Assembly: GCA_017412705.1 (NCBI GenBank)
Contig: JAFPWS010000078.1
Span: 1 to 47,183, forward strand
Origin: Prevotella sp.
Lineage (GTDB): Bacteria > Bacteroidota > Bacteroidia > Bacteroidales > Bacteroidaceae
Length of the DNA: 47,183 bases
Direction of reading: 5' to 3'
Under the pieces are notes generated by a model that ran no database searches, was not told the DNA's origin, and saw nothing but the letters and a program-made list of their open reading frames with translations. Position numbers and translations under genes: made by a program. Shown here piece by piece: positions 1 through 34,688 of the stretch. The stretch's first letter is position 1; each line of letters begins with the position of its first letter.

Positions 1-2139
1 ATACAAGCGGCCTGTCTGCTTCGAGTAGTCCATCAGCAACGGCTCCATCTGCAACGGTTCGGAGGTCAGGTTCCAGGTGGTGCGCAGACGGTGCTCCGTG
101 TTGGCCTGATAGTACTCAGTCATAGGCAACAGGTCGCTGCCTCGGCGGATGTTCAGCAGCATAATCTTGAAGCGGTTGGAGGACCGCCATGCCGCCATGT
201 CTTTCTGGTCGCTCATGAACAGTCCCTGCGAGGTGGCCACCCACAGGTGTCCATCAGTATCTACACCCATGTCGTTGATGAAGTCGCCGCGCAACCCCTC
301 GCCGTAGCCGAAATGCTGCATCTCCTTCAAGTCGTAGCTGAAGCGGAACACACCGCGCTCGGAGGCCAACACATAGTAACTGTGCATGTCGTCCACCATA
401 TTGCGACACCACTTGTCGTTAAACCGGATAGGCAACTGCAACTCGCCGAAGTCGGTCATCTGCTCGTTCGTGTAGAAGGTCTGCGGTCCTGTGCGCATAA
501 ACACCAGACCGTCGTGGCCGTTATAGGCCTTCATCCACGTCTCGCGGTTGAAGAAACCTTTGGGAAAGTTGGTATCCACGATGTCATGGCTGCGCACGCT
601 GTAGAGCGAGCAGCCTGTAGCTCCCGTCAACCAGGCATTGCCACTACGGTCGAAGGCAATGCTTAGGATGAGTCCGCCCACGATGTGGGAGTTCTGTTCG
701 GTGAAGTGCTCTTGCAGCTTGCCGTCGCCGACAATCATCAGCCCGTGTCCACAGCCTATCCACAGCCGTCCGTCAGGACCAGTCTTCAGGTCGCCTATCG
801 AGGTGTCGTCAAGCAGTGGGGAGAATGTCTGAGGGCTGAGCTGCAACGTCTGTGGGTCGAAGACGTGCAGACCGCCGTCGAAGGTGCCGACATAGAAGCG
901 GCCCTCCCACCAGACAATGGTGGTGACGATATGTCCGCCGCCCAGCTCCTGTGGCGAGTAGTAGCGATGCTGGCCGGTCTGCGTGTTGACATAGTGAAAG
1001 CCGTTCTGCGTACCGATGAGCGCATCGTCGCCATGCCGACAGAAGGTGCGCACATTCATGCCCTCCGTGGTGAAAGCCCTCTCAGTGCTCCCACTCCTAC
1101 GGGAGGGGGCTGGGGGGAGGCTGAACACGCGGAACACGTCACCGCTATAGTAGGTATAGGCCAGCCCGTGGCGCACGAAGCCAAACCAGTTGACACCGTT
1201 TGCATCGCGGTAGTAGCAGTAGACACCATTGCTCATCAGCCGGTGCGAAACGTCGCCCTCGGTGTCGAAGTGCTCCCTCACCTCTAACCTTATTGTTCCC
1301 CTCTCTTTGGGAGAGGGGTTAGGGGTGAGGCTTAATCGATACGCCCCCGCTCCGTCGGTCGCCACACAGATGCTGCCGTCGGCAGCACGCTGCACCGACA
1401 TGACGATATTGCCCACGCCTTCCACTGGCTTCATCTCATTGGTATGGATGTCGAAGGTAAAGAGTCCGTTACCTCGCGTACCTATTATATATAAACCGTC
1501 ACCGATAGGAGCAAACTGTGTCAGGATGAGCTGCCGCCCCAGAGGGTAGGGGGTCATCTTTCCGCTGCGAGGATTGTAGCTGTTCAGGTCGAAGCGGCTG
1601 AGGAACCATACCAGCCCGTCGTCACCCAAGACGTACTGGCGCACGATGTTATCCAAGCCCTTGCCGCTCGGACTGACATCGACGTGCTTCAGCTGTCGGC
1701 CGTCGTAGGCCATCAGTCCCTGCTGGCCGCCGATATAGAGCGTGTCGCCAACAGCTAACAGGCTGCTGCATTGTTGTATTTCGGGAAGTACGCGCTCAAA
1801 GCGGCCAGAACCATGCGGCAAGCGGTAAAGTCCCTCTAACGTGGCGGCATAGATGCCTGAGTTCCCCACCTCGCACAGGCTCTCCACCGACACATAGCGC
1901 CCCCGCTCGTTCTCTATACGGAAGCTGTCCATCGACTTGCCATTATAGACGTTGATGCCGCTGTTCGTCGCTATCCATGTCATGCCATTGTGGTCGGTCA
2001 TCACGCAATGGGCTGTCTCGCCCGTCAGCCCGTCGTTCAGCGTCAGGCTGACGATGCGCTCCTCACCAATAGTGGCCGCAAAGAGCAACTGCCCCATCAG
2101 CAATAAACATGCAAAAATCCCTGTCCTTGTTCGTCTCAT
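1..2139 (-). CDS. Propeller sensor of a hybrid two-component (HTCS-type) regulator, 3' end missing
   Basis: An open frame of exactly 713 codons runs from the ATG at 2139 to the window edge, so the C-terminal half is not visible. It starts with a signal peptide (MRRTRTGIFACLLLMGQLLFA), followed by repeated two-component-regulator propeller blades with motifs such as GLTGETAH, GNSGIYAATLEGLY, DGLVWFLSRF, DGRLWIGCGHGL and DGHLWVATSQGL. The last visible residues (LTSEPLQMEPLLMDY) look like the start of a Y_Y_Y domain. In this family the periplasmic propeller binds an oligosaccharide and signals to a cytoplasmic kinase and/or AraC domain, activating a PUL. Which output domains follow here cannot be seen. 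Two C-rich palindromic elements (1088-1122, 1276-1330) are carried in frame inside the propeller. A clear promoter and palindromes lie upstream. Confidence 0.88.
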   Translation of the reverse strand, partial: MRRTRTGIFACLLLMGQLLFAATIGEERIVSLTLNDGLTGETAHCVMTDHNGMTWIATNSGINVYNGKSMDSFRIENERGRYVSVESLCEVGNSGIYAATLEGLYRLPHGSGRFERVLPEIQQCSSLLAVGDTLYIGGQQGLMAYDGRQLKHVDVSPSGKGLDNIVRQYVLGDDGLVWFLSRFDLNSYNPRSGKMTPYPLGRQLILTQFAPIGDGLYIIGTRGNGLFTFDIHTNEMKPVEGVGNIVMSVQRAADGSICVATDGAGAYRLSLTPNPSPKERGTIRLEVREHFDTEGDVSHRLMSNGVYCYYRDANGVNWFGFVRHGLAYTYYSGDVFRVFSLPPAPSRRSGSTERAFTTEGMNVRTFCRHGDDALIGTQNGFHYVNTQTGQHRYYSPQELGGGHIVTTIVWWEGRFYVGTFDGGLHVFDPQTLQLSPQTFSPLLDDTSIGDLKTGPDGRLWIGCGHGLMIVGDGKLQEHFTEQNSHIVGGLILSIAFDRSGNAWLTGATGCSLYSVRSHDIVDTNFPKGFFNRETWMKAYNGHDGLVFMRTGPQTFYTNEQMTDFGELQLPIRFNDKWCRNMVDDMHSYYVLASERGVFRFSYDLKEMQHFGYGEGLRGDFINDMGVDTDGHLWVATSQGLFMSDQKDMAAWRSSNRFKIMLLNIRRGSDLLPMTEYYQANTEHRLRTTWNLTSEPLQMEPLLMDYSKQTGRLY
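1088..1122. repeat. In-frame C-rich palindromic element, copy A1
   Basis: C-rich arm, short loop and G-rich arm followed by a GGGGGGAGGCT tail. It is read in frame by the sensor gene as roughly SLPPAPSRRSGS, between two propeller blades. Same family as the other A copies but more diverged. Confidence 0.6.
1276..1330. repeat. In-frame C-rich palindromic element, copy A2
   Basis: Nested inverted repeat. The outer arms 1276-1288 and 1318-1330 match at 12 of 13 positions; the inner arms CCCCTCTC (1298-1305) and GAGAGGGG (1311-1318) are perfect. The sensor gene reads it as SLTPNPSPKERGT. It is nearly identical in core to copies A4 and A8 more than 11 kb away. Confidence 0.85.
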
Positions 2140-2165
2140 TACAGCTAATTAACCGTTTTCAACGA

Positions 2166-2208: not shown

Positions 2209-2248
2209 TTTTCTGAGCGAGGCAGCCACTTGCTTCCGTGTTGCCTGC

Positions 2249-4393: not shown

Positions 4394-4406
4394 ACATTGT
4401 TTTCTG

Positions 4407-4521: not shown

Positions 4522-4898
4522 TGACGTTAAGCCATTATTATCGTCATGCTAACATCATTTTAACGTCATTTCTATCGTTTCAGCCTAGTTCTCATGCCCG
4601 TTCAGGTTCGGCCTAACACCTTTTCACGCTCGGCCTGAAGGCCGTTCAGCCTCGGCCTGTGACATAGTTTCTCGGTAGGAAACTGGCAGTTTCCTACCGA
4701 GAAACTAACAGTTTCCTTATTGGAAACTATATATCTACCTAAGACAAAATGAACCATAAACCATTGGAAATAAACCTTTTAAGAGCTATAGAAAGACGAT
4801 TCGCCATTGAATAATGACGTTATACTGATGTTATACAATTGTTACCGTCAGCACTTAACCTTCTGATATAAAGCAATATAAGTCATGAAGTGACGTTA
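4522..4898. repeat. Four copies of the octamer TGACGTTA
   Basis: Exact copies at 4522-4529 (+), 4561-4568 (-, as TAACGTCA), 4815-4822 (+) and 4891-4898 (+). Near-copies TCGTCAT occur at 4476 and 4541. A given octamer is expected far less than once in this length, so this looks like a protein-binding motif or a dispersed repeat. Confidence 0.55.
4534..4731. repeat. 22-bp-phased repeat array
   Basis: Nine successive 22-bp windows keep register. 4534 and 4556 share (T/A)CGTCAT at the same offset. 4600, 4622 and 4644 share TTCA followed by TCGGCCT (TCGGCCT starts at 4608, 4630 and 4652), and 4578 is a weaker match. 4666, 4688 and 4710 each read AGTTTC-N7-GAAACT-N3, so every unit contains a 6-bp inverted repeat. 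The array looks like iterons or a regulatory protein array; there are no unique spacers of CRISPR type. Confidence 0.65.
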
Positions 4899-8844: not shown

Positions 8845-10509
8845 TTATTTGGTAATTCTCATCCAGTCAACATCTAACCAGCCGCGTGAGTCCTTATGGT
8901 TGCGGCACTCGGCCACGAAGCCGAACTTGGCACCAATCCACTTGCCCTCGCGCATCTTGAAGGATTCACCCGCGTCCTTAAAACGCTTGCCGTCGGTGCT
9001 GTAGCTAAAGGTACAAAGGCCGTCGTTGACGGTCATACGCAGGTACAAGTCTAAATAGATGGCAGGCGAATAAGGGATGGTGTCGCGGTCGGTAGGCGGT
9101 AGCGTGGCGAGTGACTGCTCCGTCTCCGTCTTACCCTCGTCGGCTCCCATGCAGGTGTGACGCTGGAGCAGGAACGTGTCGCCTTGTCGATAGATGACCA
9201 ATGCGCTGTAGTCGCGACCCATCATCACCACACCACCATATTGGTTATCCTCTTTTGAGGCAAAGCGCACCTTGGCCGTAGCGGTGAAACGGGGAGCCGT
9301 AGCCTTCTGTAGCAGCAGGTTAGGGGCATCCCATAAAGAGCCTACCCCCTGCCCCTCCCCAAGGGAGGGGAGATCATAAGTGTAAAGACGCATGGTGCCG
9401 TCAGCGGTTGGCATGCCGTAGAACTGATGATAGTTGGCGTGCCACTGCCACTGTTTACCCAAGATGCCGTCGTTGAACTCGTCACTCTCCTGCGGATTGA
9501 CGATGGTATTGGAGGAAGACTTTGGCTTGCGATATTTGGTATAGGGTTCACCATGATTTCCCATCATGGGCCAACCTGATGACCAGTCGACAGGCTGCAA
9601 GTAGACCACTCGCCCGTATGCACCTTTGTCGTTGAAGTGCAGGAACCAGTCTTCACCGAAAGCGGTATGAACCCATGCCCCTTGATGCGGGCCGTTGATG
9701 TCGGTCTTACCCTGCCACATCACCCGCTTCCATTCGTAGGGACCGTAGGGCGACTTCGACCGCATGGCCAACTGCCACCCCATCGCTACGCCACCAGCAG
9801 GATTCATAATCCAGTAGTAGCCGTCGCGCTTGTAGAACTTAGGACCTTCTGAGGTGTGGTTCACCTGACCGCCGTCGAAGACGATGCGCGGCTGACCAAT
9901 CTGCTTGGTGCCATCTTTGGAAAGTTCACGAACCGTCAGCACGGAATTGAAACCACAGCGACTGTTGGCCCAGCCGTTAACGAGATAGCAACGCTCGTCA
10001 TCATCCCACAGCGGACAGGGGTCTATCATGCCCTTGCCAGGGATGATGCAGACGGGCTTCTCCCACGCTCCCGCAGGGTCTTTCGTCTTGACCATAAAGA
10101 TTCCCAAGTCAGGGTCGCCCCAGTAGATATAGAATTCGCCATTATGATAGCGGATGGACGGTGCCCACACCCCCTTGCCGTGCTGTGGCTTGTCGAAGAC
10201 CTCCTTTGGCTCCAATTCCTGTAGGGCATGGCCGATAATCGTCCAGTTTACCAAGTCCTTAGAATGCAGAATAGGTAACCCAGGAATACAATTAAAGGAA
10301 CTTGCCGTCAGATAGTAGTCTTCACCAACAGCACACACGTCAGGGTCGCTATAGTCGGCATACAACACGGGATTAGTGTATGTCCCGTCACCATTGTCTG
10401 GGCACCACACACTCTCTCTCACCTGAAGGTATGAGTGTGGCACGCAATGAGCTCCTGCGGTGTTCAATAATAAAGAAAAAGCAATAAATAACAAATAGGT
10501 CTTTCGCAT
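8845..10509 (-). CDS. Glycoside hydrolase family 43 enzyme with C-terminal beta-sandwich
   Basis: 554 residues, signal peptide (LLFIAFSLLLNTAGAHC). The five-bladed GH43 catalytic domain covers about 30-330, with the three expected acids in YADYSDPDVC, GMIDPCPLW and HTSEGPKFY. The C-terminal 200 residues form a DUF1349/GH43-C2-like sandwich (FTATAKVRFASKEDNQYGGVVMMGRDY). The family contains beta-xylosidases and alpha-L-arabinofuranosidases; with its neighbours, arabinose release from pectic side chains is most likely. Palindromic copy A3 (9340-9371) lies in frame at the boundary between the domains and reads PSLGEGQGVGS. First gene of the minus-strand set; it diverges from hipB. Confidence 0.9.
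   Translation of the reverse strand: MRKTYLLFIAFSLLLNTAGAHCVPHSYLQVRESVWCPDNGDGTYTNPVLYADYSDPDVCAVGEDYYLTASSFNCIPGLPILHSKDLVNWTIIGHALQELEPKEVFDKPQHGKGVWAPSIRYHNGEFYIYWGDPDLGIFMVKTKDPAGAWEKPVCIIPGKGMIDPCPLWDDDERCYLVNGWANSRCGFNSVLTVRELSKDGTKQIGQPRIVFDGGQVNHTSEGPKFYKRDGYYWIMNPAGGVAMGWQLAMRSKSPYGPYEWKRVMWQGKTDINGPHQGAWVHTAFGEDWFLHFNDKGAYGRVVYLQPVDWSSGWPMMGNHGEPYTKYRKPKSSSNTIVNPQESDEFNDGILGKQWQWHANYHQFYGMPTADGTMRLYTYDLPSLGEGQGVGSLWDAPNLLLQKATAPRFTATAKVRFASKEDNQYGGVVMMGRDYSALVIYRQGDTFLLQRHTCMGADEGKTETEQSLATLPPTDRDTIPYSPAIYLDLYLRMTVNDGLCTFSYSTDGKRFKDAGESFKMREGKWIGAKFGFVAECRNHKDSRGWLDVDWMRITK
9340..9371. repeat. In-frame C-rich palindromic element, copy A3 (reverse orientation)
   Basis: GCCTACCCCCTGCCCCTCCC followed by a G-rich arm. 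It is inserted opposite in orientation to most copies and read by the GH43 gene as LPSLGEGQGVGSL, exactly in the linker between catalytic and C-terminal domains. Confidence 0.8.
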
Positions 10510-12100: not shown

Positions 12101-13933
12101 TTATAGCCGCCTCCCGCTTGTCGGGAGGCTCTTAATCCAATATACCACATAGCGGCAGTGCTGGAGGTCGTAGAAGGGCTGAATCGGTGTGCCGTCGCTA
12201 TTCGCAAAGCGGAGACCGCCGAGGTGTTTGACATCACCCAACTTAACATCAGGGTGCTTGCCGTAGTCGAAAGTGTAATAGTCGTTATGCTTCGTGGGGT
12301 CGCTGAAGGGCTTTTCCACATCTGTCAGGCGACCGCCGAGAACAATGGGCCCATAGAGTAGGGCGACACGCGTGGGGTCGTCCTTGGTAGCCTCCTCGTG
12401 CAGATTCATGCCAAATTCTATTTCTGACTTTTTGACGTTCTTAACCAACACATAGCCATCGGCTCCAGCCTTCACTTTCTTGCCATTCACCTTCATGTAT
12501 GTTGCCCAATACGGGTATCTGACTTTCATATTTACCTTCGATGAAGCCGTGATGACGGTCTTGTTTGACTCAGGGAATGATGTCTCTTGACGGACAATCG
12601 TACCGTCCCAATTCAGTTCAGACGGAATAAAGAGATTTACATACAGGACTTTACTCCCCTCTCCCTTTGGAAAGGGGCCGGGGGTGAGGCTTCTATAATA
12701 GATGCCTGCCTGGAACTTGGCGTTGGTCTCGAAACCAGAGCCCACACAGCACCACCAGCTGCTGTCAGGAGTGCTGTAAAGCCGATAACCGCCCGTCATC
12801 AGGGGCGTGAAGTAGCACACCATCGACGAGAGCGTGTCCTGCTGACCTAACAGGTGGTTGTAGAGTCCGCGCTCGTAGTAGTCGGCAATCTTGCTATTCG
12901 GTTCGTAGCAGAACAGACGGTCTGCCAACTTCAGCAGATTATAGGTGCAACAGCTCTCACCATCATAGCCCGTCAGATGCTTCGACTGTGTCTCTGGCTT
13001 GAACAGATGTTCCTTGTCTGATACCTCGCCCGTTACAAAGGCGTGGTCGTTGACCAGCGTCCAAAACAATGTCTCGGCAGCATGGCGACTGTCCTCCTGG
13101 CCGAACAGCTCATAGTTGCGGCATTCGCCCAACAGCTTGGGGATAAACGTATTGGCATGATTCGTACCCAGATCCGGTTTCCCCCTTTCTTCGGAGGGGG
13201 ACAGGGGGAGGCTCTTCAGCGGGTCTATCTTGTCGTTATGATAGAAGAAACGGGCCACCCAGAGATATTTATCGTCGCGGGTGATGCTGTACAGGTTATA
13301 CATGGCCTCATTGAAGCCACCGAACTCGTTACGAATCATCTTCAGACGGGTTTCTTCTGACAATGGCTTCAGTTTGTTGTATGCCCAGTCACCCATACCT
13401 TTAGCCACTTCTAATGCCTTCTCATTACCACACATCGTGTATTGGTCTATCAAACCCTGCAGGATTTTATGCAACGTATAAAACGGTGCCCAAACCGACT
13501 TGCCTTGGATATTACGGTCTATAAGCCCTTCGCCGAAGGCTGAGAGATAGCCCGTACCATACTGACGCTGCACCTCGGCCAAACCCTGCACCAGCGAGTC
13601 GGCTTTCTCCTTCATCTGCAGATAGGCCATTGCCGAAAGCAGATGACCGGTGATATGCCCGCGCAGGTCGCAGTCGGGCGACTCCCAGCCACCGAGCCTC
13701 AGCCCTGCGTCATAGCCGCCCTCCAAAGCAGAATACACGCCCGCCGTATTGCGGAACGAGTGCAACAGCCGGTTTACGGGAATCGAGGCTATCCATGCCG
13801 AGTCGCGCTGCATGTTACGCTGAAAGCGACTGTGTAGCAGTTTTACATCTTTCAATGCAAACGGCTGACATAACGTTTGTGCCGTCATCGACAGCGAAGC
13901 AAACGCGAATACTGTTAATAGCATCTTTTTCAT
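12101..13933 (-). CDS. GH127-type beta-L-arabinofuranosidase (DUF1680 family)
   Basis: 610 residues from the ATG at 13933, chosen because it begins the signal peptide MKKMLLTVFAFASLSMTAQ and overlaps the GH97 stop as ATGA; the open frame extends 28 codons further up inside GH97. The (alpha/alpha)6 domain is recognisable from SVWAPFYTLHKILQGLID, EFGGFNEAMYNLY and ESCCTYNLLKLADRLF, the last holding the paired cysteines typical of GH127. Secreted or periplasmic, removing beta-linked arabinofuranose. Palindromic copies A4 (12654-12691) and A5 (13178-13213) lie in frame. The C-terminus after RYVVYW is made by a separate hairpin sequence (12109-12129). Last gene of the three-gene overlapping operon; convergent with broken hipA. 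Confidence 0.88.
   Translation of the reverse strand: MKKMLLTVFAFASLSMTAQTLCQPFALKDVKLLHSRFQRNMQRDSAWIASIPVNRLLHSFRNTAGVYSALEGGYDAGLRLGGWESPDCDLRGHITGHLLSAMAYLQMKEKADSLVQGLAEVQRQYGTGYLSAFGEGLIDRNIQGKSVWAPFYTLHKILQGLIDQYTMCGNEKALEVAKGMGDWAYNKLKPLSEETRLKMIRNEFGGFNEAMYNLYSITRDDKYLWVARFFYHNDKIDPLKSLPLSPSEERGKPDLGTNHANTFIPKLLGECRNYELFGQEDSRHAAETLFWTLVNDHAFVTGEVSDKEHLFKPETQSKHLTGYDGESCCTYNLLKLADRLFCYEPNSKIADYYERGLYNHLLGQQDTLSSMVCYFTPLMTGGYRLYSTPDSSWWCCVGSGFETNAKFQAGIYYRSLTPGPFPKGEGSKVLYVNLFIPSELNWDGTIVRQETSFPESNKTVITASSKVNMKVRYPYWATYMKVNGKKVKAGADGYVLVKNVKKSEIEFGMNLHEEATKDDPTRVALLYGPIVLGGRLTDVEKPFSDPTKHNDYYTFDYGKHPDVKLGDVKHLGGLRFANSDGTPIQPFYDLQHCRYVVYWIKSLPTSGRRL
12109..12129. repeat. Hairpin forming the GH127 C-terminal tail
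   Basis: GCCTCCCG (12109-12116) and CGGGAGGC (12122-12129) form a perfect 8-bp stem with a 5-base loop. GH127 reads it as PTSGRRL before its stop. No T-run follows on either side, so it is a poor terminator; it looks like another short palindromic insertion. Confidence 0.6.
12654..12691. repeat. In-frame C-rich palindromic element, copy A4
   Basis: CTCCCCTCTCCCTTTGGAAA followed by GGGGCCGGGGGTGAGGCT. GH127 reads it as SLTPGPFPKGEGS. Core nearly identical to A8 in GH97. Confidence 0.85.
13178..13213. repeat. In-frame C-rich palindromic element, copy A5
   Basis: TTTCCCCCTTTCTTCGGAGG followed by a GGGACAGGGGGAGGCT tail. GH127 reads it as SLPLSPSEERGK, in a loop between helices of the barrel. 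Confidence 0.8.
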
Positions 13934-15885
13934 TTGATGACGGGTTTTATGTGCAGGGCGGCTCCACCGCTGGGTTGGAGTTGAAGGGTGATGGAGCCTC
14001 CCCCCTGCCCCCTCCAACGGGAGGGGGTGCCTACTTTGATAGTTTTCCTCATGGTGCTGACCTTGGTCTGGGTGTCAAGCGTGGGGTCGTCGTTATAGAT
14101 TTCCACTTCATATTTACCTGCGGGCAGGAAGTCGGTGGGGATGCTAACGGTGCGGGCCTCAGTATTAGTCATGCAGCCCATGAACCAGTCCTGACCGCTG
14201 CGGCGGGCCTGGATGATGTACTCACCAGGCTGACCATCGAGGGCGATACTCTCATCGAAGACGGTAGGAATATCTTTCCAGAACTTCAACTCAGCATTGT
14301 TCCATCCCTTCATATATGGATTATCATACCAGAAGTAGAACTGCAGGGGAGAGTAATAGACGGCCGCCATCGCCAACTGATGGCCCTTGGTATTCTTCAC
14401 CCGTGAGTTGAAGTAGCACAGCGTATAATCGCCAGGGCCGCAGAGGTAGCGGGTGAAAGGCAGCGTCACGTTGTGCGTGGCGTCGGGCATTTCCTCGTTG
14501 CCACGAATACCCTCCTGGGTCAGTAGATGAGGATAGGTGCGGGAGAGACCCGTGGGACGGTACTCGTCGTGGATATCAACCATGATGTGATACTTGGCGC
14601 ACTTCTCCACAGCGTCATGCAGCCATGTGCTCCACTGTTGGTTGCCGATATGCACAAAGCCGAACTTGATGCCGCTGATTCCCCACTGCTGATAGAGCGG
14701 AAGCAGTTCGTCGAGCTGACGATAGAGGGCACGCTGGTTGACATATACCCACACGCCAATGCCTTTCGACTTGGCATAAGCACAGACCTCGGGCATGGTA
14801 AAGTCGCGCGTCTCGATGACCTTGCGGGCATCGCTCGCCACCTTACCTTCAGGACCGTACCAGCCAGCATCCAACTCCACATACGGAATACCAAACTCTG
14901 CACAGAAATCGATGCTCTTCATAATGGCATCCTTAGCCAACTTGCCACTACGGAAAGCCTTGCCGGGACGTACCCACGACCAGTCTTCCTGAGCGCGCTC
15001 TTCATTCAGGTTCAGCACCAAGTCTTTATGATTGATGAGGTCGACGGCGCGGTCGCCCGCCATGATGACACGCCATGGAGTATCATAGGGCGAGATGATG
15101 TCGGCACATGAGTACATGGCTATCTGCAAAACATTGTCTTTTGCCAACTTGAACTTGCCTCGGGTATAGTCTTTCATCGCTGCTTCAAGCAGGGCGACAT
15201 AGGTGGCCTCCCCCGTCCCCTCCGAAGGAGGGGGGACAAGCAGCAACAGCGGTCGTTCACTCTCAAACCATTCACTCCCCTCTCCCTTTGGAGAGGGGCT
15301 GGGGGTGAGGCTTCTTTTCTCGTATGCTCCCTGTGCCCATTCCTCATACCAGGCCATTGTCCCTGTCGGCATGGCAAACGACGTCTGCTCTCCCGTGATG
15401 TGCAGGAAGAGGCTATTGGCCGTTTCGGGGAAATGGTAGCGAAAAGCAATGCCCTCGTTGTAGGCACGAACCACGATGTCCATGGCATAGTACTTGCGTT
15501 TGTCGTAGCCTTCAGTGACGGTGCCCTGACCATTGCTGCCCTTCTCATAATGCAGCACCAACTGGTTGTAGTGGTCGCGAATGCGGGTGTTCTCACCATA
15601 CAGCGGAGTCCATGTGGTGTCTACTGACAGGCGTTCCTCGCCCTTCAATTGCAAATCGGCGCACCAGTTTTCGTGAACGCCACGAGGCACGGCAAGAGCC
15701 GACTCAAAGAGCCGGTTGTCAATGTCGACGCCCAGCTGGCTCTTCTCGATAATCACCTTATTATTATAAGTCACACTATAGGTCATGCCGTCGACGCTGA
15801 TAGTGTACTTGCCGTCAGGTGACGACAACTGCTGTGCCATAGACAGCAGGGGCAGGAATGCCAAAAGAAACAGGCTCTTTCTCAT
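13930..15885 (-). CDS. Glycoside hydrolase family 97 enzyme
   Basis: 651 residues from the ATG at 15885, which starts the signal peptide MRKSLFLLAFLPLLSMAQ and overlaps the upstream stop by one base (TAATG). Domain order is that of GH97: N-terminal beta-sandwich (about 20-270), a TIM barrel (about 280-560; YVELDAGWYG, GVWVYVNQR, GISGIKFGFVH, HIMVDIHDEYRPTGLSRTYP, TQEGIRGNEE), and a C-terminal beta-domain. The family contains alpha-glucosidases and retaining alpha-galactosidases; the second fits the pectin-type context, but substrate is not settled by sequence reading. It carries three in-frame palindromic elements (A6, A7, A8), the most in the window. Its stop overlaps the GH127 start by 4 bases, so translation is probably coupled. 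Confidence 0.9.
   Translation of the reverse strand: MRKSLFLLAFLPLLSMAQQLSSPDGKYTISVDGMTYSVTYNNKVIIEKSQLGVDIDNRLFESALAVPRGVHENWCADLQLKGEERLSVDTTWTPLYGENTRIRDHYNQLVLHYEKGSNGQGTVTEGYDKRKYYAMDIVVRAYNEGIAFRYHFPETANSLFLHITGEQTSFAMPTGTMAWYEEWAQGAYEKRSLTPSPSPKGEGSEWFESERPLLLLVPPPSEGTGEATYVALLEAAMKDYTRGKFKLAKDNVLQIAMYSCADIISPYDTPWRVIMAGDRAVDLINHKDLVLNLNEERAQEDWSWVRPGKAFRSGKLAKDAIMKSIDFCAEFGIPYVELDAGWYGPEGKVASDARKVIETRDFTMPEVCAYAKSKGIGVWVYVNQRALYRQLDELLPLYQQWGISGIKFGFVHIGNQQWSTWLHDAVEKCAKYHIMVDIHDEYRPTGLSRTYPHLLTQEGIRGNEEMPDATHNVTLPFTRYLCGPGDYTLCYFNSRVKNTKGHQLAMAAVYYSPLQFYFWYDNPYMKGWNNAELKFWKDIPTVFDESIALDGQPGEYIIQARRSGQDWFMGCMTNTEARTVSIPTDFLPAGKYEVEIYNDDPTLDTQTKVSTMRKTIKVGTPSRWRGQGGGSITLQLQPSGGAALHIKPVIK
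13996..14031. repeat. In-frame C-rich palindromic element, copy A6 (reverse orientation)
   Basis: GCCTCCCCCCTGCCCCCTCC, a short loop, then GGGAGGGGGTGCC. GH97 reads it as GTPSRWRGQGGGS within its last beta-domain. Confidence 0.8.
15205..15237. repeat. In-frame C-rich palindromic element, copy A7 (reverse orientation)
   Basis: GGCCTCCCCCGTCCCCTCCG followed by AAGGAGGGGGGAC. GH97 reads it as VPPPSEGTGEAT, only 37 bases from copy A8. Confidence 0.8.
15275..15312. repeat. In-frame C-rich palindromic element, copy A8
   Basis: CTCCCCTCTCCCTTTGGAGA followed by GGGGCTGGGGGTGAGGCT; the cleanest copy and close to a family consensus. GH97 reads it as SLTPSPSPKGEGS in the N-terminal sandwich. Confidence 0.85.
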
Positions 15886-18296
15886 TATTTCTTGAATATT
15901 AGGTTTTCTACATGGGAACCGACGAACATCGGCACGTAGTCGGCAGTCTGATGCCACCTGGGCTTGCCTGGCATGTCATCGTAAATCTTCTTACCGTTTA
16001 TCTTCAGTCCTTCGAAGGTGACGTTCTTCACCTTGTGCTGACCGTCATAACCCATGATGACCGACATGTTGGGATGCGCACCGTAGTAACGGATGTTTCG
16101 GAAGAGGACATTCTCCACACCTCCACCGGCTGCCGTGCAGTATTTCTGGTTCCAGCCCACTTTCACCTGCAGGATACTGCCCTGTGGAGCCACCTGGGCA
16201 GGCAGTTCGATACGGATATTGTCGAACACGACATCCTTCACGTAGTTACCGTCACCGCAGTTGATGGCCAAGCAGCCTTGGTAGTCCACCTGCGGCTCGT
16301 TCTGACAGATGATGTCGATGTTGTCGTACTTCAGTCCCACGATGCTATCGCCCACCTGCGGATTACCATGCAGACCGATGAAGATGGGGTGTGCCACGTC
16401 GGCCCACAGCGTCGAGTTCGTCATGCGGACATTACGAACACTGCCTTTGAAGCCTTTGACCTGTCGGTCGAGTTCAGGCTGCGCCTCGGCAGAATTCAAG
16501 CCTGCTTGGTTCTGCTCTCGGCTTGCACTGAACTTGCGGGTAGCGTATACAGTGGTACAGTCGTCACTATTACGACAGAATACACGGTCGAAGAGAATAT
16601 CGCTGCTGCCACCGAAGACATTCAGACCGTCGCCCCACTGGGGATGGGAAATACTTCGCACATCGTGCAGCGTCACCTGCGAGGACTCGCCAATAGGACA
16701 GGTATTCACGATGAGTCCGTCAATCAGCACATTCTTCGAGCGATATACATGACAGCCCTCATAGCCATTCTGCGGACGAGCAATGCCACGCCCCAGTATG
16801 CTAACGTTCTCAGCATCTTCCACAGCGAAGGTGCCGGAGAAATAACTGCCACCGTCGAGATAGACCGTAGTATTCGACGGCACCTTGATTATGTCTTCCG
16901 TGTACATGCCGGGGGCATAGTAGCGGAAGTCACGGCCCTGTGCCTTGGCTGCTTTCTCGGCTTCTTCCTTGCTGATGGTTGGCTTCGAGGTAAAGACTAA
17001 CAAATTATCGGTGATATTCCCGTCAAACTCCACACTGACATTTTCGGGCTGGAACAACAAGAACTGCACCGTCGAGTCGTTCTGCACATTGGCAATCGTT
17101 CCGCGATAGTCGGGACGGATACATGCTGACTTAAATTTCTTGTTTTTCGTGATGACACGCACAAACACGTCGCCTGTAAAGTTGAAGAAGGCATAGCTGA
17201 TCTCGCCTCCCTTGACTTTCGCCATATAGGTATCTATCTTCGTCCACTCCTTTTGTCCGCGTGGCTGGATGTAGACGTCGTAGTCAGCTTTGAGCGGAGC
17301 ACCTTCTGGCGCAGCATAAGTATAGATGCTGTGCAACTTGGCACCCTCCTTCACGCCCTTTACGCGGAATTGGTCGGCCTCGGGATTGCGCTTGATTTCA
17401 CCATGTTTCTCGGCCTTGGCCTGCAAATCGAGCAACTTCTTGGTATAAGGCATCTTCAATCCCTTGCGTCCCACATAGTGCTGATAAGGCAAATCGTAGA
17501 TGCAGCGAATGTTGCCGCGTCCCATCGCGCCTGGCTCTGTCCAGTCGTTATAGAGACCTGTGCAGTCGGTCCACGTCTCGAAGGGCACGTCGTAGCCCAG
17601 GTTGTACTTCGCTGTATATTCGATACCTTTCATCAGGCGGTTGTCCAAGGCTCCCCAAAGGTCATCCCCTTGTTCCCACGCCATCTCGCAAATTTCACAC
17701 ATGGCACCCAGTCCAAGCTGGGCATGTCCCTGGTCGCGCCCAGTCTCCTGACACTGACCCGTCTCGCTGACATAATTGGGCAGGGAGCCATTGTCGTTGG
17801 CATATAAATAGGTGTCAATAGCATGCTGATAGAGCTCTTTGTCTTCCAGGAAGATAGCTGCGGCCATGCGACAGCGGTTCACGATGTGTCCCCAGTTGCC
17901 GTTGGCATACGGGCTGTCAGCCTCAAACTTATCAAGAACAGGCAGTATGGCCCGACGAACCATCGCTGTCCACTCTGGTGTCTGATGCGCCTTGGACAGT
18001 ATCATCGCACGCAGCAACCAGTAGGCCTGAATGGTACACAACGGTGCATCATGACCGTCGAAGTGCTGTAGCGTCTTGGCGTAAGCATTAATAATATATA
18101 ATGTAGTGGCCGTGTCACCCTTCTGGACCCGCTGCCACGCCTGCCACATATCACGCTCGCTACCGCCTTTCGACTTCCGGTACTCACCGTCACGCGCCAC
18201 CACCTCGTAGGGTCCCGCCAGCTTATAGTTGTCCTGTGCATAGCCTTGCAACAATGGGCAGATAACCAACGATAAAACTATAATCAGTCGTTTCAT
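15885..18296 (-). CDS. Alginate-lyase-like domain fused to a GH28-like beta-helix enzyme
   Basis: 803 residues with a signal peptide (MKRLIIVLSLVICPLLQGYAQ). The N-terminal 40-330 is helical and resembles the alginate-lyase-type (alpha/alpha) toroid (ILPVLDKFEADSPYANGNWG, CQETGRDQGHAQLGLGAMCE). A middle beta-domain follows (about 340-470). From about 490 the sequence is a right-handed beta-helix like GH28 (VYLDGGSYFSGTFAVEDAEN, VSILGRGIARPQNG, GDGLNVFGGS, RNSDDCTTVYATR with an acidic pair). Likely a periplasmic enzyme acting on a uronate-containing glycan; the exact reaction and whether both domains are active are unknown. First gene of the overlapping operon with GH97 and GH127. No in-frame palindromes were seen in it. 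Confidence 0.8.
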   Translation of the reverse strand: MKRLIIVLSLVICPLLQGYAQDNYKLAGPYEVVARDGEYRKSKGGSERDMWQAWQRVQKGDTATTLYIINAYAKTLQHFDGHDAPLCTIQAYWLLRAMILSKAHQTPEWTAMVRRAILPVLDKFEADSPYANGNWGHIVNRCRMAAAIFLEDKELYQHAIDTYLYANDNGSLPNYVSETGQCQETGRDQGHAQLGLGAMCEICEMAWEQGDDLWGALDNRLMKGIEYTAKYNLGYDVPFETWTDCTGLYNDWTEPGAMGRGNIRCIYDLPYQHYVGRKGLKMPYTKKLLDLQAKAEKHGEIKRNPEADQFRVKGVKEGAKLHSIYTYAAPEGAPLKADYDVYIQPRGQKEWTKIDTYMAKVKGGEISYAFFNFTGDVFVRVITKNKKFKSACIRPDYRGTIANVQNDSTVQFLLFQPENVSVEFDGNITDNLLVFTSKPTISKEEAEKAAKAQGRDFRYYAPGMYTEDIIKVPSNTTVYLDGGSYFSGTFAVEDAENVSILGRGIARPQNGYEGCHVYRSKNVLIDGLIVNTCPIGESSQVTLHDVRSISHPQWGDGLNVFGGSSDILFDRVFCRNSDDCTTVYATRKFSASREQNQAGLNSAEAQPELDRQVKGFKGSVRNVRMTNSTLWADVAHPIFIGLHGNPQVGDSIVGLKYDNIDIICQNEPQVDYQGCLAINCGDGNYVKDVVFDNIRIELPAQVAPQGSILQVKVGWNQKYCTAAGGGVENVLFRNIRYYGAHPNMSVIMGYDGQHKVKNVTFEGLKINGKKIYDDMPGKPRWHQTADYVPMFVGSHVENLIFKK

Positions 18297-30578: not shown

Positions 30579-30583
30579 GGGGA

Positions 30584-30615: not shown

Positions 30616-30624
30616 AAGATTTAC

Positions 30625-33234
30625 TTATTTTTGCAATCCGAAGTCAGCCTGCTGGGCTTCCACCTCTTGCAGCATCTTGGCTTTCTCTGCCTCGTTGAGG
30701 GTAACTGACGGCTGATGGCTGACGGCTGATGGCTGTTCTCTCTTTGAGAGTGTGGCGTTGCAATGGGTCTTAGCAACTTCCCTGACATCATAGCACATCG
30801 GCAAACTATAGGGTACGCTCTCTATCTCCAGCTCAGCAGGTGTTGGGGCGTGCGTGCCAGGGAACTGTACCTCGGCCTTGACCTTAATCTTTCCCGCCTG
30901 TCTGGTGGAACGGACCAATACTGGTGCAGAGCCCCACTCCACGGCCCTTGGGTTGGCATTGATGCTGGCATCGCCAATAATCTCTCCCTCACCTTCAACG
31001 GTAAACCGGATATTCTCCTTGGCCAGCCGGCGTACATGTCCCAGGTCGTCAGTAACCTCACAGATGACGACGATAAAGTCGCTACCGTCAGCCACCAGCT
31101 GTTTGCCCATCTCGTCAGCACGAAGACGCAACTTGGTAGAACGGCGTGAGGGCATCTTCTCCTCACTGCAGACCACCTTGCCGTTGACTATTCCTTCTGC
31201 CACCATCTTCACGTTCTGCCAGTTGCGCTGGGTGTAGCTCCAGTTGCGGGCCTCGAAGAAGTCCCAACCATCCTTGAAGACTACGCAACCATTGTCGACG
31301 GGCAACGTCCAGCAGTGCTCACCACCATACATCGTCAGGCGTACACTGTCGCAGTTGCTGAAGACGGTGATGTCTTTCTCAGAGAACTGCGTCATCTCAT
31401 GGGCTATGGCGACAATGGGTTTCTCAGTGGGCTCTGTCAGTTTGGCGGAAAACATCGAGAATGCTGTCTTAGGCTGACGGAATGCATCGTAGATACCGCC
31501 CCAATAGGGGTCGGGATGATAGCCACGCTGGTGGTCGAAGGGATGCCATTGGCAACCACCAATAAACTGACCGGTGGTTTTGTAAAGCTCATTGGTGCTG
31601 TTAAGTAATGAGAGAGCCTGTGTCAGCATGGGGCGTTCACCCCAAGAGCGAGAGGCACGGTTCAGGTTGTTATGGGCATACCAGTCGTCTACCAGTTCGC
31701 CAAACTCACGGGTAAAGATGCACTGCTTAGGCTTGTCTGCCTTGAAGTCATCGCCAGGCCAGCCATAGACTACGTCATAATGGTCTGCCACACCAGCCGA
31801 ATGGACATCGGCAGCCGCCACTGGACGATAGGGATAGGGATATTCGTCCTTGGTAATCTGCAGGGCTTGCAGGGCAAACTCTTCCGGATAGCGTGTTTCG
31901 TTGAGGATGGGTTCCCACATCAGGACACAAGGATGATTGCGGTCTCGTCGGATGATGGAGCGGGTGTTCTGGTGTACCTTCTCGTCCCAGCCCTTGTCCT
32001 TGTTCCAATATTGCCAGCCAGGGGTAGCCACAATGATAAACAGTCCCAGCTCGTCGCAAGCATCCATGAATGATGGGTCTTGCGGATAGTGAGCTGTTCG
32101 GATGATGGTGAAGCCTGCATCACGAAGCCGCTTGGCATCGCGCCACTGCTGAGCATTGGGCAGGGCATTGCCTACATAGGCAAAGTCCTGATGGCGGTTG
32201 GCACCCACCAGCTGGTGATAGCGCTTACCGTTTAGCCAGAAGCCTTCCTGCCCTTTGAACTCGAAGGAACGGATGCCTATCTTGGTGATGCCTCCGTCGA
32301 GCGGCTGCCTGCCCTCCTTAATGCGGGTAGCTATACTATATAAATAAGGTGTCTCGGGCGACCAGAGCTGAGGATTCTTGACGGTGAACTTCTGGGAGAC
32401 TGTCTTCACCTCGCCAGCCTTCAGCCGCAGCTTGGTGCTGACGGTCTTGTCCAGCGTGTTCTCAACGGTGACGGTATGTGCCTTGCTGTCGTTGTTACGT
32501 ACCTCGGTGTTGACATAGACCTCGGCACGCTTGTCGCTGATGTCGGCATAATGGACGAAGATGCCCCCTCCTGCCACTTTGTTTTCCTCCACGGCATCGG
32601 TGACAGCCACCTTAGACTTGGCAATGAGCCAGACATCACGATAGATGCCGCCATGGTAGGCAAAGTCGAGTGTCATCTGCTTCTTGCCTGGGGGATAGGT
32701 CTTGTCGTCGCTGTTGTCAGCCTTGACAGCAACAACCACCTTGTCACCAGCTGAACAGCCAAGGGCGGAGAGGTTCAGGTTGACAGGCAGGTAACCACCC
32801 TCATGGTACTTGACCTGCCGGCCATTGACAAAGAACGTCTGCTTGCCCATGACGGCCTCGAAATGCAGGATGACATCACGACCCTGAGTCTCTTTCGGCA
32901 TGGTGAAGTGCTTACGATACCAGGAAATGCCCTGATAGTTACGGCAGCCACTGGCCTCGGCAGGCATCAGCTGCACGGTATGAGGCGTTGATACCACCTC
33001 CCAAGCCCGGTCGTCGAAGTCTTTAGCCTCGGCACCAGCAGCGTCGCCCAGGTGGAAGCACCATCCGGCATTGAAGTTCCAAACCAGCCGGCCACTGTCA
33101 TCCAAGGGGAAGAGGCCGGCGACAGAAGGCCTGTCTCCATCCCCTGTCAAAATGGAGGGGAGTGCGGATGCATAGACGGCAAATAGAAGGGATATACAGG
33201 TAAAAAGCGTTCTTTTAATCATAAGGCACTTCAT
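30625..33234 (-). CDS. Glycoside hydrolase family 2 enzyme (beta-galactosidase-like)
   Basis: 869 residues, signal peptide (LFTCISLLFAVYASA). Sugar-binding jelly roll (about 40-210), immunoglobulin-like domain (to about 320), TIM barrel (about 320-600) with acid/base Glu in LNETRYPEEF and nucleophile-type Glu in FTREFGELVDDW, then C-terminal beta-domains. The family covers beta-galactosidases, glucuronidases and mannosidases. The last 45 residues are a low-homology tail built from repeats: a 14-bp tandem duplication (30705-30732) and the 29-bp family B element (30737-30765) both lie in frame there. Its start overlaps the esterase stop by four bases. Confidence 0.9.
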   Translation of the reverse strand: MKCLMIKRTLFTCISLLFAVYASALPSILTGDGDRPSVAGLFPLDDSGRLVWNFNAGWCFHLGDAAGAEAKDFDDRAWEVVSTPHTVQLMPAEASGCRNYQGISWYRKHFTMPKETQGRDVILHFEAVMGKQTFFVNGRQVKYHEGGYLPVNLNLSALGCSAGDKVVVAVKADNSDDKTYPPGKKQMTLDFAYHGGIYRDVWLIAKSKVAVTDAVEENKVAGGGIFVHYADISDKRAEVYVNTEVRNNDSKAHTVTVENTLDKTVSTKLRLKAGEVKTVSQKFTVKNPQLWSPETPYLYSIATRIKEGRQPLDGGITKIGIRSFEFKGQEGFWLNGKRYHQLVGANRHQDFAYVGNALPNAQQWRDAKRLRDAGFTIIRTAHYPQDPSFMDACDELGLFIIVATPGWQYWNKDKGWDEKVHQNTRSIIRRDRNHPCVLMWEPILNETRYPEEFALQALQITKDEYPYPYRPVAAADVHSAGVADHYDVVYGWPGDDFKADKPKQCIFTREFGELVDDWYAHNNLNRASRSWGERPMLTQALSLLNSTNELYKTTGQFIGGCQWHPFDHQRGYHPDPYWGGIYDAFRQPKTAFSMFSAKLTEPTEKPIVAIAHEMTQFSEKDITVFSNCDSVRLTMYGGEHCWTLPVDNGCVVFKDGWDFFEARNWSYTQRNWQNVKMVAEGIVNGKVVCSEEKMPSRRSTKLRLRADEMGKQLVADGSDFIVVICEVTDDLGHVRRLAKENIRFTVEGEGEIIGDASINANPRAVEWGSAPVLVRSTRQAGKIKVKAEVQFPGTHAPTPAELEIESVPYSLPMCYDVREVAKTHCNATLSKREQPSAVSHQPSVTLNEAEKAKMLQEVEAQQADFGLQK
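30705..30732. repeat. 14-bp tandem duplication in the GH2 C-terminal tail
   Basis: CTGACGGCTGATGG occurs twice in a row (30705-30718 and 30719-30732). It is read as part of SAVSHQPSV. Directly next to the family B element. Confidence 0.75.
30737..30765. repeat. Family B coding repeat, copy B1
   Basis: 29 bases identical to copy B2 (36562-36590), containing TCTCTTTGAGAG as a hairpin core. Read in frame by GH2 as HCNATLSKRE. Confidence 0.85.
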
Positions 33235-34688
33235 TTTGGTTCATTATAGTCCCCCTTCCCTTTGGAAGGGGTTAGGGGCAGGCTGTCCCAATTGTCTGTC
33301 CTAAACGACGATACCGGCAGGCCATCATGCATCAGGTCGCCCTCTGTCCAGTCTTTAAAGGCATAGCGGACGGCAGCAGGCTGCTTGACATCGTCACACT
33401 TGACATAGACACGGTTACGACTGACCCATACCTTCGAAGCAGGGTAGAACACTTTATCGCTGCCAGCCACCTCGAAGTTGTTGGAGGTTGTGCCGTGCTC
33501 AAAGTATACCCACTCCTTGGAACGGTCGAAGCTAATGACACAGGTGTCGTTCTTGAACTCCACCTCTTTATATTTGGCAAACTCCGGCAGGCCCTTGACG
33601 TCGTAGGTGTTGGCAAGTGCCAGCAAGGCCAGACGCTCACCAGCCTGGCGTTTCTTCCTGGGATGGATGCCATACTCCAGGCCGGCATCCATCAGCACAG
33701 CCATGCGGGCATTAGGAATCATCTCCTCTACCTTTGCCTGTTGCTCGCGAAGATACTGGCTGTCTTTCCACTGGATGAGCGAGTAGTCGTAGGGAGCTAT
33801 CTGGCAATAGTAGAAGGGGAAATCGCCCTGTTGCCACTCAGCGCGCCACCCTTCGACCATCCGGGCCATCAGGGGAGCATAGTAGTCATAACGGGGAATG
33901 TTGTCCTCCCCCTGATACCAGATGGCGCCCCGCATGGTATAGCCGATCAGCGGTTTGAGCTGACCATTATAGAGGGCCGTAGGACAACGCTGCTGCAGCT
34001 TCTTGACGTCAGCCTCCGTCACATGCTGGTTGACCTTAGGGAAGGCCTTGAGCCAGTCGGCCTTCATCCAGGCCTCGCAGGCTGAGCCACCCCACGATGT
34101 TGCAATCAGGCCTACGGGTACGCCCAGTGTCTGACGCAGCGCACGGCCAAAGTAGTAGGCAGTGGCCGAGAAGTCGCGAACGCTGGCTGCTATGGCCTCA
34201 TCCCAATGACCTGTGACATCCTGTTCAGGGGTCAGCGAGGCGTGGCGCTTAACGGTGAAGAGGCGTAGCTGCGAGTCCTTACAACGCAACAGCTCCTCCG
34301 TCGTGCCCTCGACAGGCTGCTGCTTGAAACCTTTCATCTGCATCTCCATGTTCGACTGGCCACTACATATCCATACCTCACCAATGAGGATGTTCTCCAG
34401 GGAGCAGATGCTGCCATCGTTGAACGTGATGCTGTAAGGTCCTCCAGCCTCGGGGGTCTGCACTTTCAGCTCGAAGCGTCCTGCCCGGTCAGCCTTTGTC
34501 GTATAGGTCTTCTGGTCCCAGGAGGTCGTAACGCTGACCGTCTTCCCTTTATCGGTCCAGCCCCACAGGTTACACTCCGTTTGTTGTTGCAACACCATGT
34601 TGTCACTGAAGAAGTTGGGCAAGGTGACATGTGCCACGACATGGCCAACTAAAAAATAACAAATAATCAATAAAGCGATGCGTCTCAT
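33231..34688 (-). CDS. Secreted sialate O-acetylesterase-like SGNH esterase
   Basis: 485 residues, signal peptide (MRRIALLIICYFLVGHVVA). The SGNH/sialate O-acetylesterase family is shown by the leading beta-domain (LPNFFSDNMVLQQQTECNLW), the nucleophile block GEVWICSGQSNMEMQM, WGGSACEAWM and GAIWYQGEDN. In PULs these enzymes remove acetyl groups from pectin or other glycans before glycosidases act. The gene sits between GH106 and GH2. The family's usual end (SSFRTDNW) is extended by palindromic copy A9 (33250-33284), which supplies SLPLTPSKGKGDY and the final residues. Confidence 0.9.
   Translation of the reverse strand: MRRIALLIICYFLVGHVVAHVTLPNFFSDNMVLQQQTECNLWGWTDKGKTVSVTTSWDQKTYTTKADRAGRFELKVQTPEAGGPYSITFNDGSICSLENILIGEVWICSGQSNMEMQMKGFKQQPVEGTTEELLRCKDSQLRLFTVKRHASLTPEQDVTGHWDEAIAASVRDFSATAYYFGRALRQTLGVPVGLIATSWGGSACEAWMKADWLKAFPKVNQHVTEADVKKLQQRCPTALYNGQLKPLIGYTMRGAIWYQGEDNIPRYDYYAPLMARMVEGWRAEWQQGDFPFYYCQIAPYDYSLIQWKDSQYLREQQAKVEEMIPNARMAVLMDAGLEYGIHPRKKRQAGERLALLALANTYDVKGLPEFAKYKEVEFKNDTCVISFDRSKEWVYFEHGTTSNNFEVAGSDKVFYPASKVWVSRNRVYVKCDDVKQPAAVRYAFKDWTEGDLMHDGLPVSSFRTDNWDSLPLTPSKGKGDYNEPK
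33250..33284. repeat. In-frame C-rich palindromic element, copy A9
   Basis: TCCCCCTTCCCTTTGGAAGG followed by GGTTAGGGGCAGGCT. Read as SLPLTPSKGKG at the extreme C-terminus of the esterase, 16 bases before the GH2 start. Confidence 0.82.

What the first reader, a model, noticed from the sequence alone, without database searches (positions are those of the whole stretch)
1088..33284. A family of C-rich palindromic elements inserted in frame in PUL genes
Nine copies (1088-1122, 1276-1330, 9340-9371, 12654-12691, 13178-13213, 13996-14031, 15205-15237, 15275-15312, 33250-33284) share a C-rich arm, a TTTGG or similar loop, a G-rich arm and a GGGG(T/A)GAGGC-like tail. Every copy lies inside a coding gene, in frame, and adds about 10-18 residues. 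Hosts are the propeller sensor (2), GH43 (1), GH127 (2), GH97 (3) and the esterase (1). None was found in the T9SS operon, pepP, parE, the S41 protease or vapE. Rickettsia palindromic elements are the known precedent for coding palindromes; I am not aware of this family being described in Bacteroidota.
Basis: partly seen in the sequence, partly recalled or inferred. Interest (0 to 1): 0.78.

Follow-up and report, generated by a model that had tools for sequence, protein, structure and literature searches.

The report
Gene-invading palindromes tied to a nuclease
Short hairpin-forming DNA repeats have slipped in frame into bacterial genes here, and relatives show that the same kind of repeat brackets a small DNA-cutting enzyme gene that itself often sits inside essential proteins, which points to a little-known kind of mobile DNA.

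Summary
The nine C-rich palindromes are real insertions: homologues lack them in GH43, GH127 and GH97 (the sensor and esterase copies were not tested). They are not confined to PUL genes: the genome also has them in leuS, hemW-like and radA-like genes. In three relatives the family is mainly intergenic, often as inverted pairs.

A gene goes with them: DUF559, a small Vsr-like nuclease. Of 80 same-genus DUF559 elements, 63 have matching inverted palindromic ends (shifted control 1/133); where a genome has several, an element's own two ends match best in 38 of 43 cases. Over 150 genomes element counts follow DUF559 (median 21 versus 0). Whole DUF559 elements sit in frame in LeuRS, ValRS, RecG, PriA, guanylate kinase and other proteins of Bacteroidota. 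The flanking pattern recurs in 14 of 22 plasmid loci of three other phyla. The DUF559 profile matches a PDB chain named 'Mobile intron protein'.

Best reading: the window copies are non-autonomous derivatives of DUF559 mobile elements. Mobility is inferred, not shown.

The parts
1087..1122 (-). palindromic element, copy 1, in the propeller sensor ORF (1-2139, minus, cut by the window edge)
1276..1332 (-). palindromic element, copy 2 (core 1295-1332; a longer outer palindrome from 1276), in the same sensor ORF; encodes SLTPNPSPKERGT
9339..9374 (+). palindromic element, copy 3, in the GH43 gene (8848-10509, minus); faces a gap in BoGH43B 5joz
12654..12691 (-). palindromic element, copy 4, in the GH127 gene (12104-about 13945, minus); faces a gap in 5opj
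13178..13213 (-). palindromic element, copy 5, in the GH127 gene; faces gaps in 5opj
13995..14030 (+). palindromic element, copy 6, near the C-terminus of the GH97 gene (13933-15891, minus); +30 nt against L337 and L338
15205..15238 (+). palindromic element, copy 7, in the GH97 gene; +21 nt net against L335-L338
15275..15312 (-). palindromic element, copy 8, in the GH97 gene; +18 to +27 nt net against L335-L338; encodes SLTPSPSPKGEGS
33249..33284 (-). palindromic element, copy 9, at the C-terminus of the SASA-type esterase gene (33234-34691, minus)

Best explanation
The window copies are short, non-autonomous derivatives of a mobile element whose complete form is one small gene, DUF559 (a Vsr-like, PD-(D/E)XK-type nuclease), between two inverted copies of the palindrome. 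SHOWN by sequence: the tested inserts are absent from homologues; many DUF559 genes lie between matching inverted palindromes, in four phyla; end sequence goes with DUF559 lineage; element number goes with DUF559 presence in the genus; short and full elements occupy the same loop of LeuRS in different species; nearly all of this genome's copies in coding sequence are in frame. INFERRED: the nuclease recognises its own hairpin ends and cuts or nicks DNA, and the element is copied into a break by repair, which fits the lack of target-site duplications and the replacement of a few native bases; solo or paired palindromes spread in trans. The A-type copy at 15275 has no stop in five of six frames (read directly) and encodes a flexible Pro/Ser/Gly-rich linker, so insertions of a multiple of three into surface loops are tolerated; others in genes are lost by selection. 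Where the nuclease gene itself lands in frame it becomes an unspliced extra domain of the host protein and is inherited largely vertically. The DUF559 gene that served the window's A-type copies was not found in this incomplete assembly; the single DUF559 found, inside a GH31 gene on contig C73, has a B-type-like right end.
For: Insertion. In frame: of 26 non-redundant own-genome copies 16 have coding sequence on both sides and 15 of these keep one frame. DUF559 between inverted palindromes: 63/80 same-genus elements (0/240 shuffled; 1/133 intervals shifted by 900 bases in loci L148-L223); 40/80 named loci, 30/36 for L224-L259 and 10/44 for the rest (largest shuffled score 13.5); 14/22 loci in other phyla (1/44 shifted, 0/110 shuffled). 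Cognate ends: own left and right ends are the best match among siblings in 38 of 43; DUF559 pairs share ends in 7% of cases at 35-45% identity, 47% at 55-65%, 91% at 65-75% and 84% above 75%; Mantel p 0.002. Co-occurrence: 79 DUF559+ genomes median 21 hits, 71 DUF559- median 0, p 5e-15; without the DUF559+ genomes that fed the model p 1.6e-7. In-frame nuclease in host proteins: 62/80 named loci, 33 of them LeuRS by motif; Pfam on 18 chosen examples. Same LeuRS loop holds an inverted pair (G000), a solo (G016) or the whole element (G105, G025). Kinship: PDB 3hrl E 3.7e-28, 3r3p 'Mobile intron protein' E 7.8e-7; 20 invariant columns in 40 DUF559s; core motif kept in 30/33 LeuRS-borne copies. No target-site duplication: 1/53.
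Against: No movement was observed. 13 of 71 DUF559- genomes have at least 5 elements and 18 of 79 DUF559+ genomes fewer than 5; many genomes are incomplete, counts saturate at about 45 and species are not independent. In G001 the end sequence of one of its two DUF559 elements occurs only at that locus (3 matches, all there), so it has no solo copies at 3 mismatches. 17 of 80 same-genus elements, 40 of 80 named loci and 8 of 22 others fail the end-match threshold; in-frame copies and the Flavobacteriia fail most. LeuRS-borne DUF559 follows its host (Mantel r 0.595), so descent explains much of the same-site recurrence. R1 finds no strong element beside DUF559 genes of other subfamilies (L153, L159, L167, L169, L173). 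In G011 a palindrome that brackets its Y1 transposase (L134) also occurs just inside the left end of its DUF559 element (L160). The window has no DUF559 gene.
Confidence: 0.7

Rival explanations
1. The palindromes move by an unknown enzyme or by hairpin-driven recombination, and DUF559 genes are passengers caught between two copies.
For: Pairs of inverted palindromes without a gene are common; DUF559- genomes with many elements exist; no movement was shown.
Against: End-gene pairing within a genome (38/43) and co-divergence of ends with the nuclease are not expected of random cargo. In the standalone elements the matching ends lie within about 300 bases of the domain (windows), which leaves little room for another gene; other enzymes elsewhere in the genome were not screened, except Y1_Tnp.
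Confidence: 0.15
2. DUF559 with its palindromes is a repair or defence unit: the nuclease handles hairpins or methylated sites (Vsr-like), and the pattern reflects host benefit and not selfish spread.
For: A Caulobacter DUF559 protein is described as Vsr-like and linked to a solitary cytosine methyltransferase (PMC12907096, passages); the core motif is kept in 30 of 33 LeuRS-borne copies that largely follow their host.
Against: Patchy presence (79/150 in the genus), up to 7 divergent copies per genome, mostly with different ends, and different positions within one operon in three Deinococcus species look like mobility.
Confidence: 0.08
3. They are ordinary REP elements moved by a RAYT (Y1 tyrosine transposase).
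For: Size, hairpin, one-end tag and inverted pairs are REP-like (PMC3733652 passages); the genome has one Y1_Tnp gene; in G011 a palindrome of its Y1_Tnp locus lies beside a DUF559 end.
Against: No R1 element in the 3.4 kb around the own Y1_Tnp; G003, G008, G019, G020 and G023 have 10 to 44 hits and no Y1_Tnp; no correlation over 24 genomes (p 0.59 and 0.90); 8 of 16 Y1_Tnp loci tested (14 more were too short) have inverted ends, of other sequence.
Confidence: 0.05
4. Native, low-complexity loops of the proteins.
For: The peptides are Pro/Gly-rich and lie in loops.
Against: Absent from homologues for the tested copies; the same DNA occurs in several frames, both orientations, and between genes.
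Confidence: 0.02

Closest known systems
REP/REPIN elements with RAYT (REPtrons, TIRtrons)
   Same: 20-40 bp hairpin with an unpaired tag at one end, inverted dimers, a single enzyme gene between copies, repeat-specific enzyme, intragenic copies known (PMC3733652 and PMC6006769, passages).
   Different: Enzyme is DUF559 (Vsr kin), not a HUH Y1 transposase; no GTAG tag at the outer end; the complete element can sit in frame inside essential proteins. PMC3733652 states that its other superfamily, CGTC REPs, apparently lacks a dedicated transposase.
Rickettsia palindromic elements (RPE)
   Same: Palindromes inserted in unrelated genes and translated.
   Different: Other lineage, about 36 bp, and here an associated nuclease gene. 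No sequence comparison was made; RPE details beyond the passages in PMC3733652 are recalled.
Vsr-like (EDxHD) homing endonucleases
   Same: Profile match to 3r3p 'Mobile intron protein' (E 7.8e-7; recalled to be I-Bth0305I); recurrent sites in conserved genes. EDxHD/Vsr homing nucleases are described in PMC12350094 (passages).
   Different: No splicing domain in 18 fused proteins (Pfam); ends are palindromes; solo derivatives exist.
MITEs
   Same: Short, apparently non-autonomous, with inverted ends.
   Different: No target-site duplication (1/53) and no transposase gene seen in the elements.

Membership tests
REP/RAYT (REPtron) | 20-40 bp palindrome with an unpaired tag at one end, often in inverted dimers | tested here: met
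REP/RAYT (REPtron) | GTAG tag at the outer end | tested here: not met
   outer tag is mostly AGCCT or similar
REP/RAYT (REPtron) | bracketing of a Y1 tyrosine transposase by this family | tested here: not met
   (16 of 30 Y1_Tnp loci long enough to test)
Rickettsia palindromic elements | in-frame palindromic inserts absent from homologues | tested here: met
   (6 of the 9 window copies, and leuS)
Rickettsia palindromic elements | sequence kinship, CGTC tag | tested here: inconclusive
   tag here holds CCTC, which PMC3733652 gives as a frequent variant of CGTC; no sequence comparison with RPE was made
DUF559 (PF04480) | profile match over the curated cut-off | tested here: met
Homing endonuclease element | nuclease related to a known homing endonuclease | tested here: met
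   3r3p E 7.8e-7; that 3r3p is a homing endonuclease is taken from its name and from recall
Homing endonuclease element | self-splicing intein or intron around the nuclease | tested here: not met
   no intein domain in 18 fused proteins; RNA introns were not searched for, but the frames are continuous
Homing endonuclease element | cleavage of the empty allele and copying into it | not testable with these tools
   needs biochemistry
MITE of a DDE transposon | target-site duplication | tested here: not met
   1 of 53 elements with 5 bp or more, null 1.0%

The most novel reading that the evidence does not exclude
A separate class of bacterial mobile element, present in at least four phyla, in which a Vsr-like DUF559 nuclease with its own cognate palindromic ends takes the place of a transposase, seeds genomes with solo palindromes, and persists by sitting, unspliced and in frame, as an extra domain of essential proteins such as LeuRS, ValRS, RecG, PriA and guanylate kinase. 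It would give an enzyme to families of C-rich repeats in Bacteroidota, sphingomonads, some rhizobia, Deinococcus and some cyanobacteria.
Probability: 0.55. Interest if true: 0.93.

Novelty: new variant of a known kind. Interest (0 to 1): 0.87.

Why it matters
Palindromic repeats without an enzyme are an open problem: PMC3733652 (passages) says that CGTC REPs, which include Rickettsia coding palindromes, apparently lack a dedicated transposase. This work gives a concrete, testable enzyme for another large group of palindromes. It also shows a way in which new peptides, and a whole nuclease domain, enter essential proteins without splicing, and it suggests a role for DUF559, which Pfam still lists as of unknown function.

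Tried and rejected
RAYT: searched in the own genome and 40 relatives and rejected. Restriction to PUL genes: rejected. Reading 15205/15275 as a doublet: rejected by alignment. A link to CGTC REPs: a limited motif scan of L224-L303, which printed only loci with three or more hits, showed none that brackets DUF559, so no link is claimed. Solo copies of a G001 end sequence: none found. Model R2 holds little information and was used only for a scan of loci. The ten paper searches listed no paper that ties DUF559 (14 papers hold the word), PF04480 or COG2852 (5 papers) or the five encoded peptides tried (none) to repeats or mobility; I saw listings with abstract starts and the passages cited, no whole paper, and most subscription journals are not held. 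Structure prediction of DUF559 was accepted but not finished; a solved relative, 3hrl, exists.

Biases: R1 was trained on coding copies of this genome. The genomes were those with many hits. The 20 loci were picked for large open frames, L177-L203 were the best-scoring loci, and the 20 came from genomes with several copies or few contigs; the 80 elements are drawn from these. The 80 named loci are the best 80 of 124. The 22 plasmid loci are my choice from 43 matching records. In one search other subfamilies and unclear hosts were left out of the 55 rows. One search uses 31 of the 33 LeuRS loci (without L240 and L297) plus L154 and L207. In one search, C61 copies (duplicates of the window) were left out. 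G008 was also: 1 of 6 copies passed the strict frame test there.
Full report
WHAT IS IN THE WINDOW. The nine copies reported are all present. Most share an outer tag (AGCCT, then CA in the A type), a C-rich stretch, and a hairpin of about 8 bp with a short loop. Six copies read along the minus strand and three along the plus strand; the five host genes are on the minus strand. Pfam agrees with the hosts named: propeller sensor, GH43, GH127, GH97 and a SASA-type esterase. A hairpin pattern gives 5 matches in the window (4 of the 9 copies) and none in 100 shuffles.

THEY ARE INSERTIONS. In the alignment of the GH127 protein with 5opj both inserts face gaps of 9 and 11 residues; the GH43 insert faces a gap of 9 in 5joz. 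Four GH97 relatives from the genus (71-84% identity) were aligned on DNA: net +30 nt at 13995 (against L337 and L338; L335 and L336 carry other repeats there), +21 nt at 15205, and +18 to +27 nt at 15275, with replacement of a few native bases. The strand between 15205 and 15275 is native, so these are two events. The two sensor copies and the esterase copy were not tested.

NOT ONLY PUL GENES. In the whole assembly (3.42 Mb, 96 contigs, 86% complete) R1 gives 32 hits at E 0.01 (150 of 453 candidates scored). Eight are duplicates on contig C61, which mirrors the left part of the window. Other hosts are leuS (an inverted pair), a hemW-like and a radA-like gene, GH31 and more. Of 26 non-redundant copies examined, 16 have recognisable coding sequence on both sides and 15 of these stay in one frame (binomial p 8e-7 against one third); selection against frame breaks is the simplest reason. 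In three relatives (G011, G016, G019) only 1 of 89 copies passes the same test, and in G008 1 of 6: there most are next to or between genes, often as inverted pairs. Still, one G008 metH gene carries three model hits in one frame and keeps its Pfam domains.

THE NUCLEASE. Two in-frame copies led to DUF559: in G000 a GH31 gene, and in G008 an RNase H-like gene, each contain a DUF559 domain between palindrome-encoded peptides. DUF559 was then searched in 40 relatives (18 with a match) and 150 same-genus genomes: 79 have it at E 1e-10, up to 7 copies each. A search for inverted repeats across the gene, made without the element models, found long matching C-rich palindromes with the tag outward. 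Of 80 same-genus elements 63 reach a score of 15; shuffles give 0 of 240, and intervals shifted by 900 bases in loci L148-L223 give 1 of 133. Of 80 named loci, nearly all Bacteroidota, 40 reach it: 30 of the 36 nearest (L224-L259) and 10 of the other 44, which are mostly Flavobacteriia.

COGNATE ENDS. In genomes with several DUF559 copies (35-70% identity to each other in the genomes), most copies have their own end sequence, and left and right ends match each other: the own right end is the best match among siblings in 38 of 43 cases. Over all pairs of the 80 elements, the share with similar ends is 7% at 35-45% DUF559 identity, 14% at 45-55%, 47% at 55-65%, 91% at 65-75% and 84% above (Spearman 0.231, Mantel p 0.002). 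This is how enzyme and ends behave in transposons.

NUMBERS FOLLOW THE NUCLEASE. A third model, R3, built from 133 elements and ends, was run on the 150 genomes. DUF559+ genomes have a median of 21 hits and 61 of 79 have at least 5; DUF559- genomes a median of 0 and 13 of 71 (Mann-Whitney p 5e-15). Leaving out the 42 DUF559+ genomes that fed the model, 37 remain with median 10, 23 of 37 with at least 5 (p 1.6e-7). The Y1 transposase, the usual REP enzyme, shows no relation over 24 genomes (p 0.59 and 0.90); 8 of 16 testable Y1 loci have inverted ends of other sequence. In G011 one such palindrome also lies just inside the left end of the DUF559 element (L134 and L160).

NUCLEASES INSIDE ESSENTIAL PROTEINS. 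Pfam on ten and eight chosen proteins shows DUF559 within or fused to guanylate kinase, RNase H, LeuRS, YgbB (IspF), an amino acid kinase (ArgB-like), DegT, an epimerase, an AAA helicase, an ABC protein, GH31, and PriA, ValRS-like and IleRS-like synthetases, RecG, UvrD, MazG, a CCA-adding-type enzyme and LeuRS. Of 80 named loci, 62 have DUF559 in a frame of at least 230 residues, 33 of them LeuRS by motif, including cultured Capnocytophaga, Gillisia, Maribacter, Zunongwangia, Salegentibacter and Flavobacterium; the other 18 are short standalone frames. In leuS of the genus, 22 of 29 copies read have the same 111-nt empty stretch; G000 has an inverted pair there, G016 a solo copy, four others different inserts, and outside these 29 G105 and G025 have the whole DUF559 element. 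DUF559 sequences cluster by insertion site (16 changes, shuffled mean 32). LeuRS-borne copies follow their host (Mantel r 0.595, n 33), so same-site recurrence is mainly descent there; guanylate kinase shows a weaker signal (r 0.475, n 9), RNase H (n 4) and IspF (n 3) none.

OTHER PHYLA. Of 22 DUF559 loci that I fetched from the 43 matching plasmid records, in Pseudomonadota, Deinococcota and Cyanobacteriota, 14 have matching inverted ends (highest score 104, Sinorhizobium meliloti); shifted intervals give 1 of 44 and shuffles 0 of 110. The eight without are Azospirillum brasilense, Photobacterium, Sinorhizobium K101, Shinella, Methylobacterium, Picosynechococcus 7002 (14.5) and two Synechocystis plasmids. 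In three Deinococcus species the gene sits at different points between hpaB and hpaE, and in Sphingomonas between suf genes and between transhydrogenase genes.

WHAT THE ENZYME MAY BE. A profile of 40 DUF559s finds 3hrl, 'Endonuclease-Like Protein' (E 3.7e-28), and 3r3p, 'Mobile intron protein' (E 7.8e-7) in the PDB; I recall 3r3p as the Vsr-like homing endonuclease I-Bth0305I. Twenty columns are invariant, and 30 of 33 LeuRS-borne copies keep the core motif. No target-site duplications are seen (1 of 53, null 1.0%). A break-and-copy mechanism fits, but no step of it was observed.

LITERATURE. PMC3733652 (passages) describes GTAG and CGTC REPs, intragenic copies, and the apparent lack of a transposase for CGTC REPs. 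PMC6006769 (passages) describes Y1 subclasses with their REPs. PMC12907096 (passages) and PMC6712171 (one passage) mention DUF559 in repair contexts. PMC12350094 (passages) describes EDxHD/Vsr homing nucleases in phage introns. PMC7251935 (one passage) lists COG2852 as very short patch repair. The ten searches listed nothing that ties DUF559 to palindromic repeats; this covers open-access papers only.

VERDICT. The stronger finding is the tie to DUF559. I give 0.7 to the reading that these palindromes are ends and derivatives of DUF559 mobile elements, and 0.55 to the bolder reading that this is a class of its own.

Noticed in passing
window 4666-4730 and 35135-35243: A second palindromic repeat, 22-nt units of the type AGTTTCCTACCGAGAAACTGG in tandem, at two places outside the reported family.
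   Followed up: no
window 30737-30765 and 36562-36590: An exact 29-nt duplicate, TCTCTCTTTGAGAGTGTGGCGTTGCAATG, inside two different long ORFs.
   Followed up: no
G000 contig C61 (L059) against window 1-15.3 kb: Contig C61 repeats the left part of the window in reverse with the same eight elements; 100% identical over the 4,959 bases compared. An assembly duplicate or a real duplication.
   Followed up: partly
L335 and L336, GH97 loops: Relatives carry different AT-rich repeats (for example TGTAAATTGTAAATCGT) in the same GH97 loops that hold palindromes here, as if these loops accept several kinds of insert.
   Followed up: no
L318, L319, L322, L323 (leuS of G070, G075, G057, G069): The LeuRS loop hit in this genome holds other inserts in further species; those of L319 and L323 look palindromic but differ in sequence.
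   Followed up: partly
L076 1234-5175 (G008 metH): One methionine synthase gene carries three model hits and further look-alike peptides in one frame and still has five MetH-type Pfam domains.
   Followed up: partly
L134 and L160 (G011): A palindrome (GCGGCCCTTGTGGCCGTCCTA) of a Y1 transposase locus also lies next to the left end of the DUF559 element of the same genome.
   Followed up: no
L125, L126, L127, L131, L133, L138: Y1 transposase genes of relatives have inverted palindromes of their own, of other sequence, as expected of RAYTs.
   Followed up: no
L291, MAG titled Rhizobium sp. Q54: The DUF559 locus of this MAG has ends like those of L280 and L296, titled Bacteroidetes, so the contig is probably a contaminant.
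   Followed up: no
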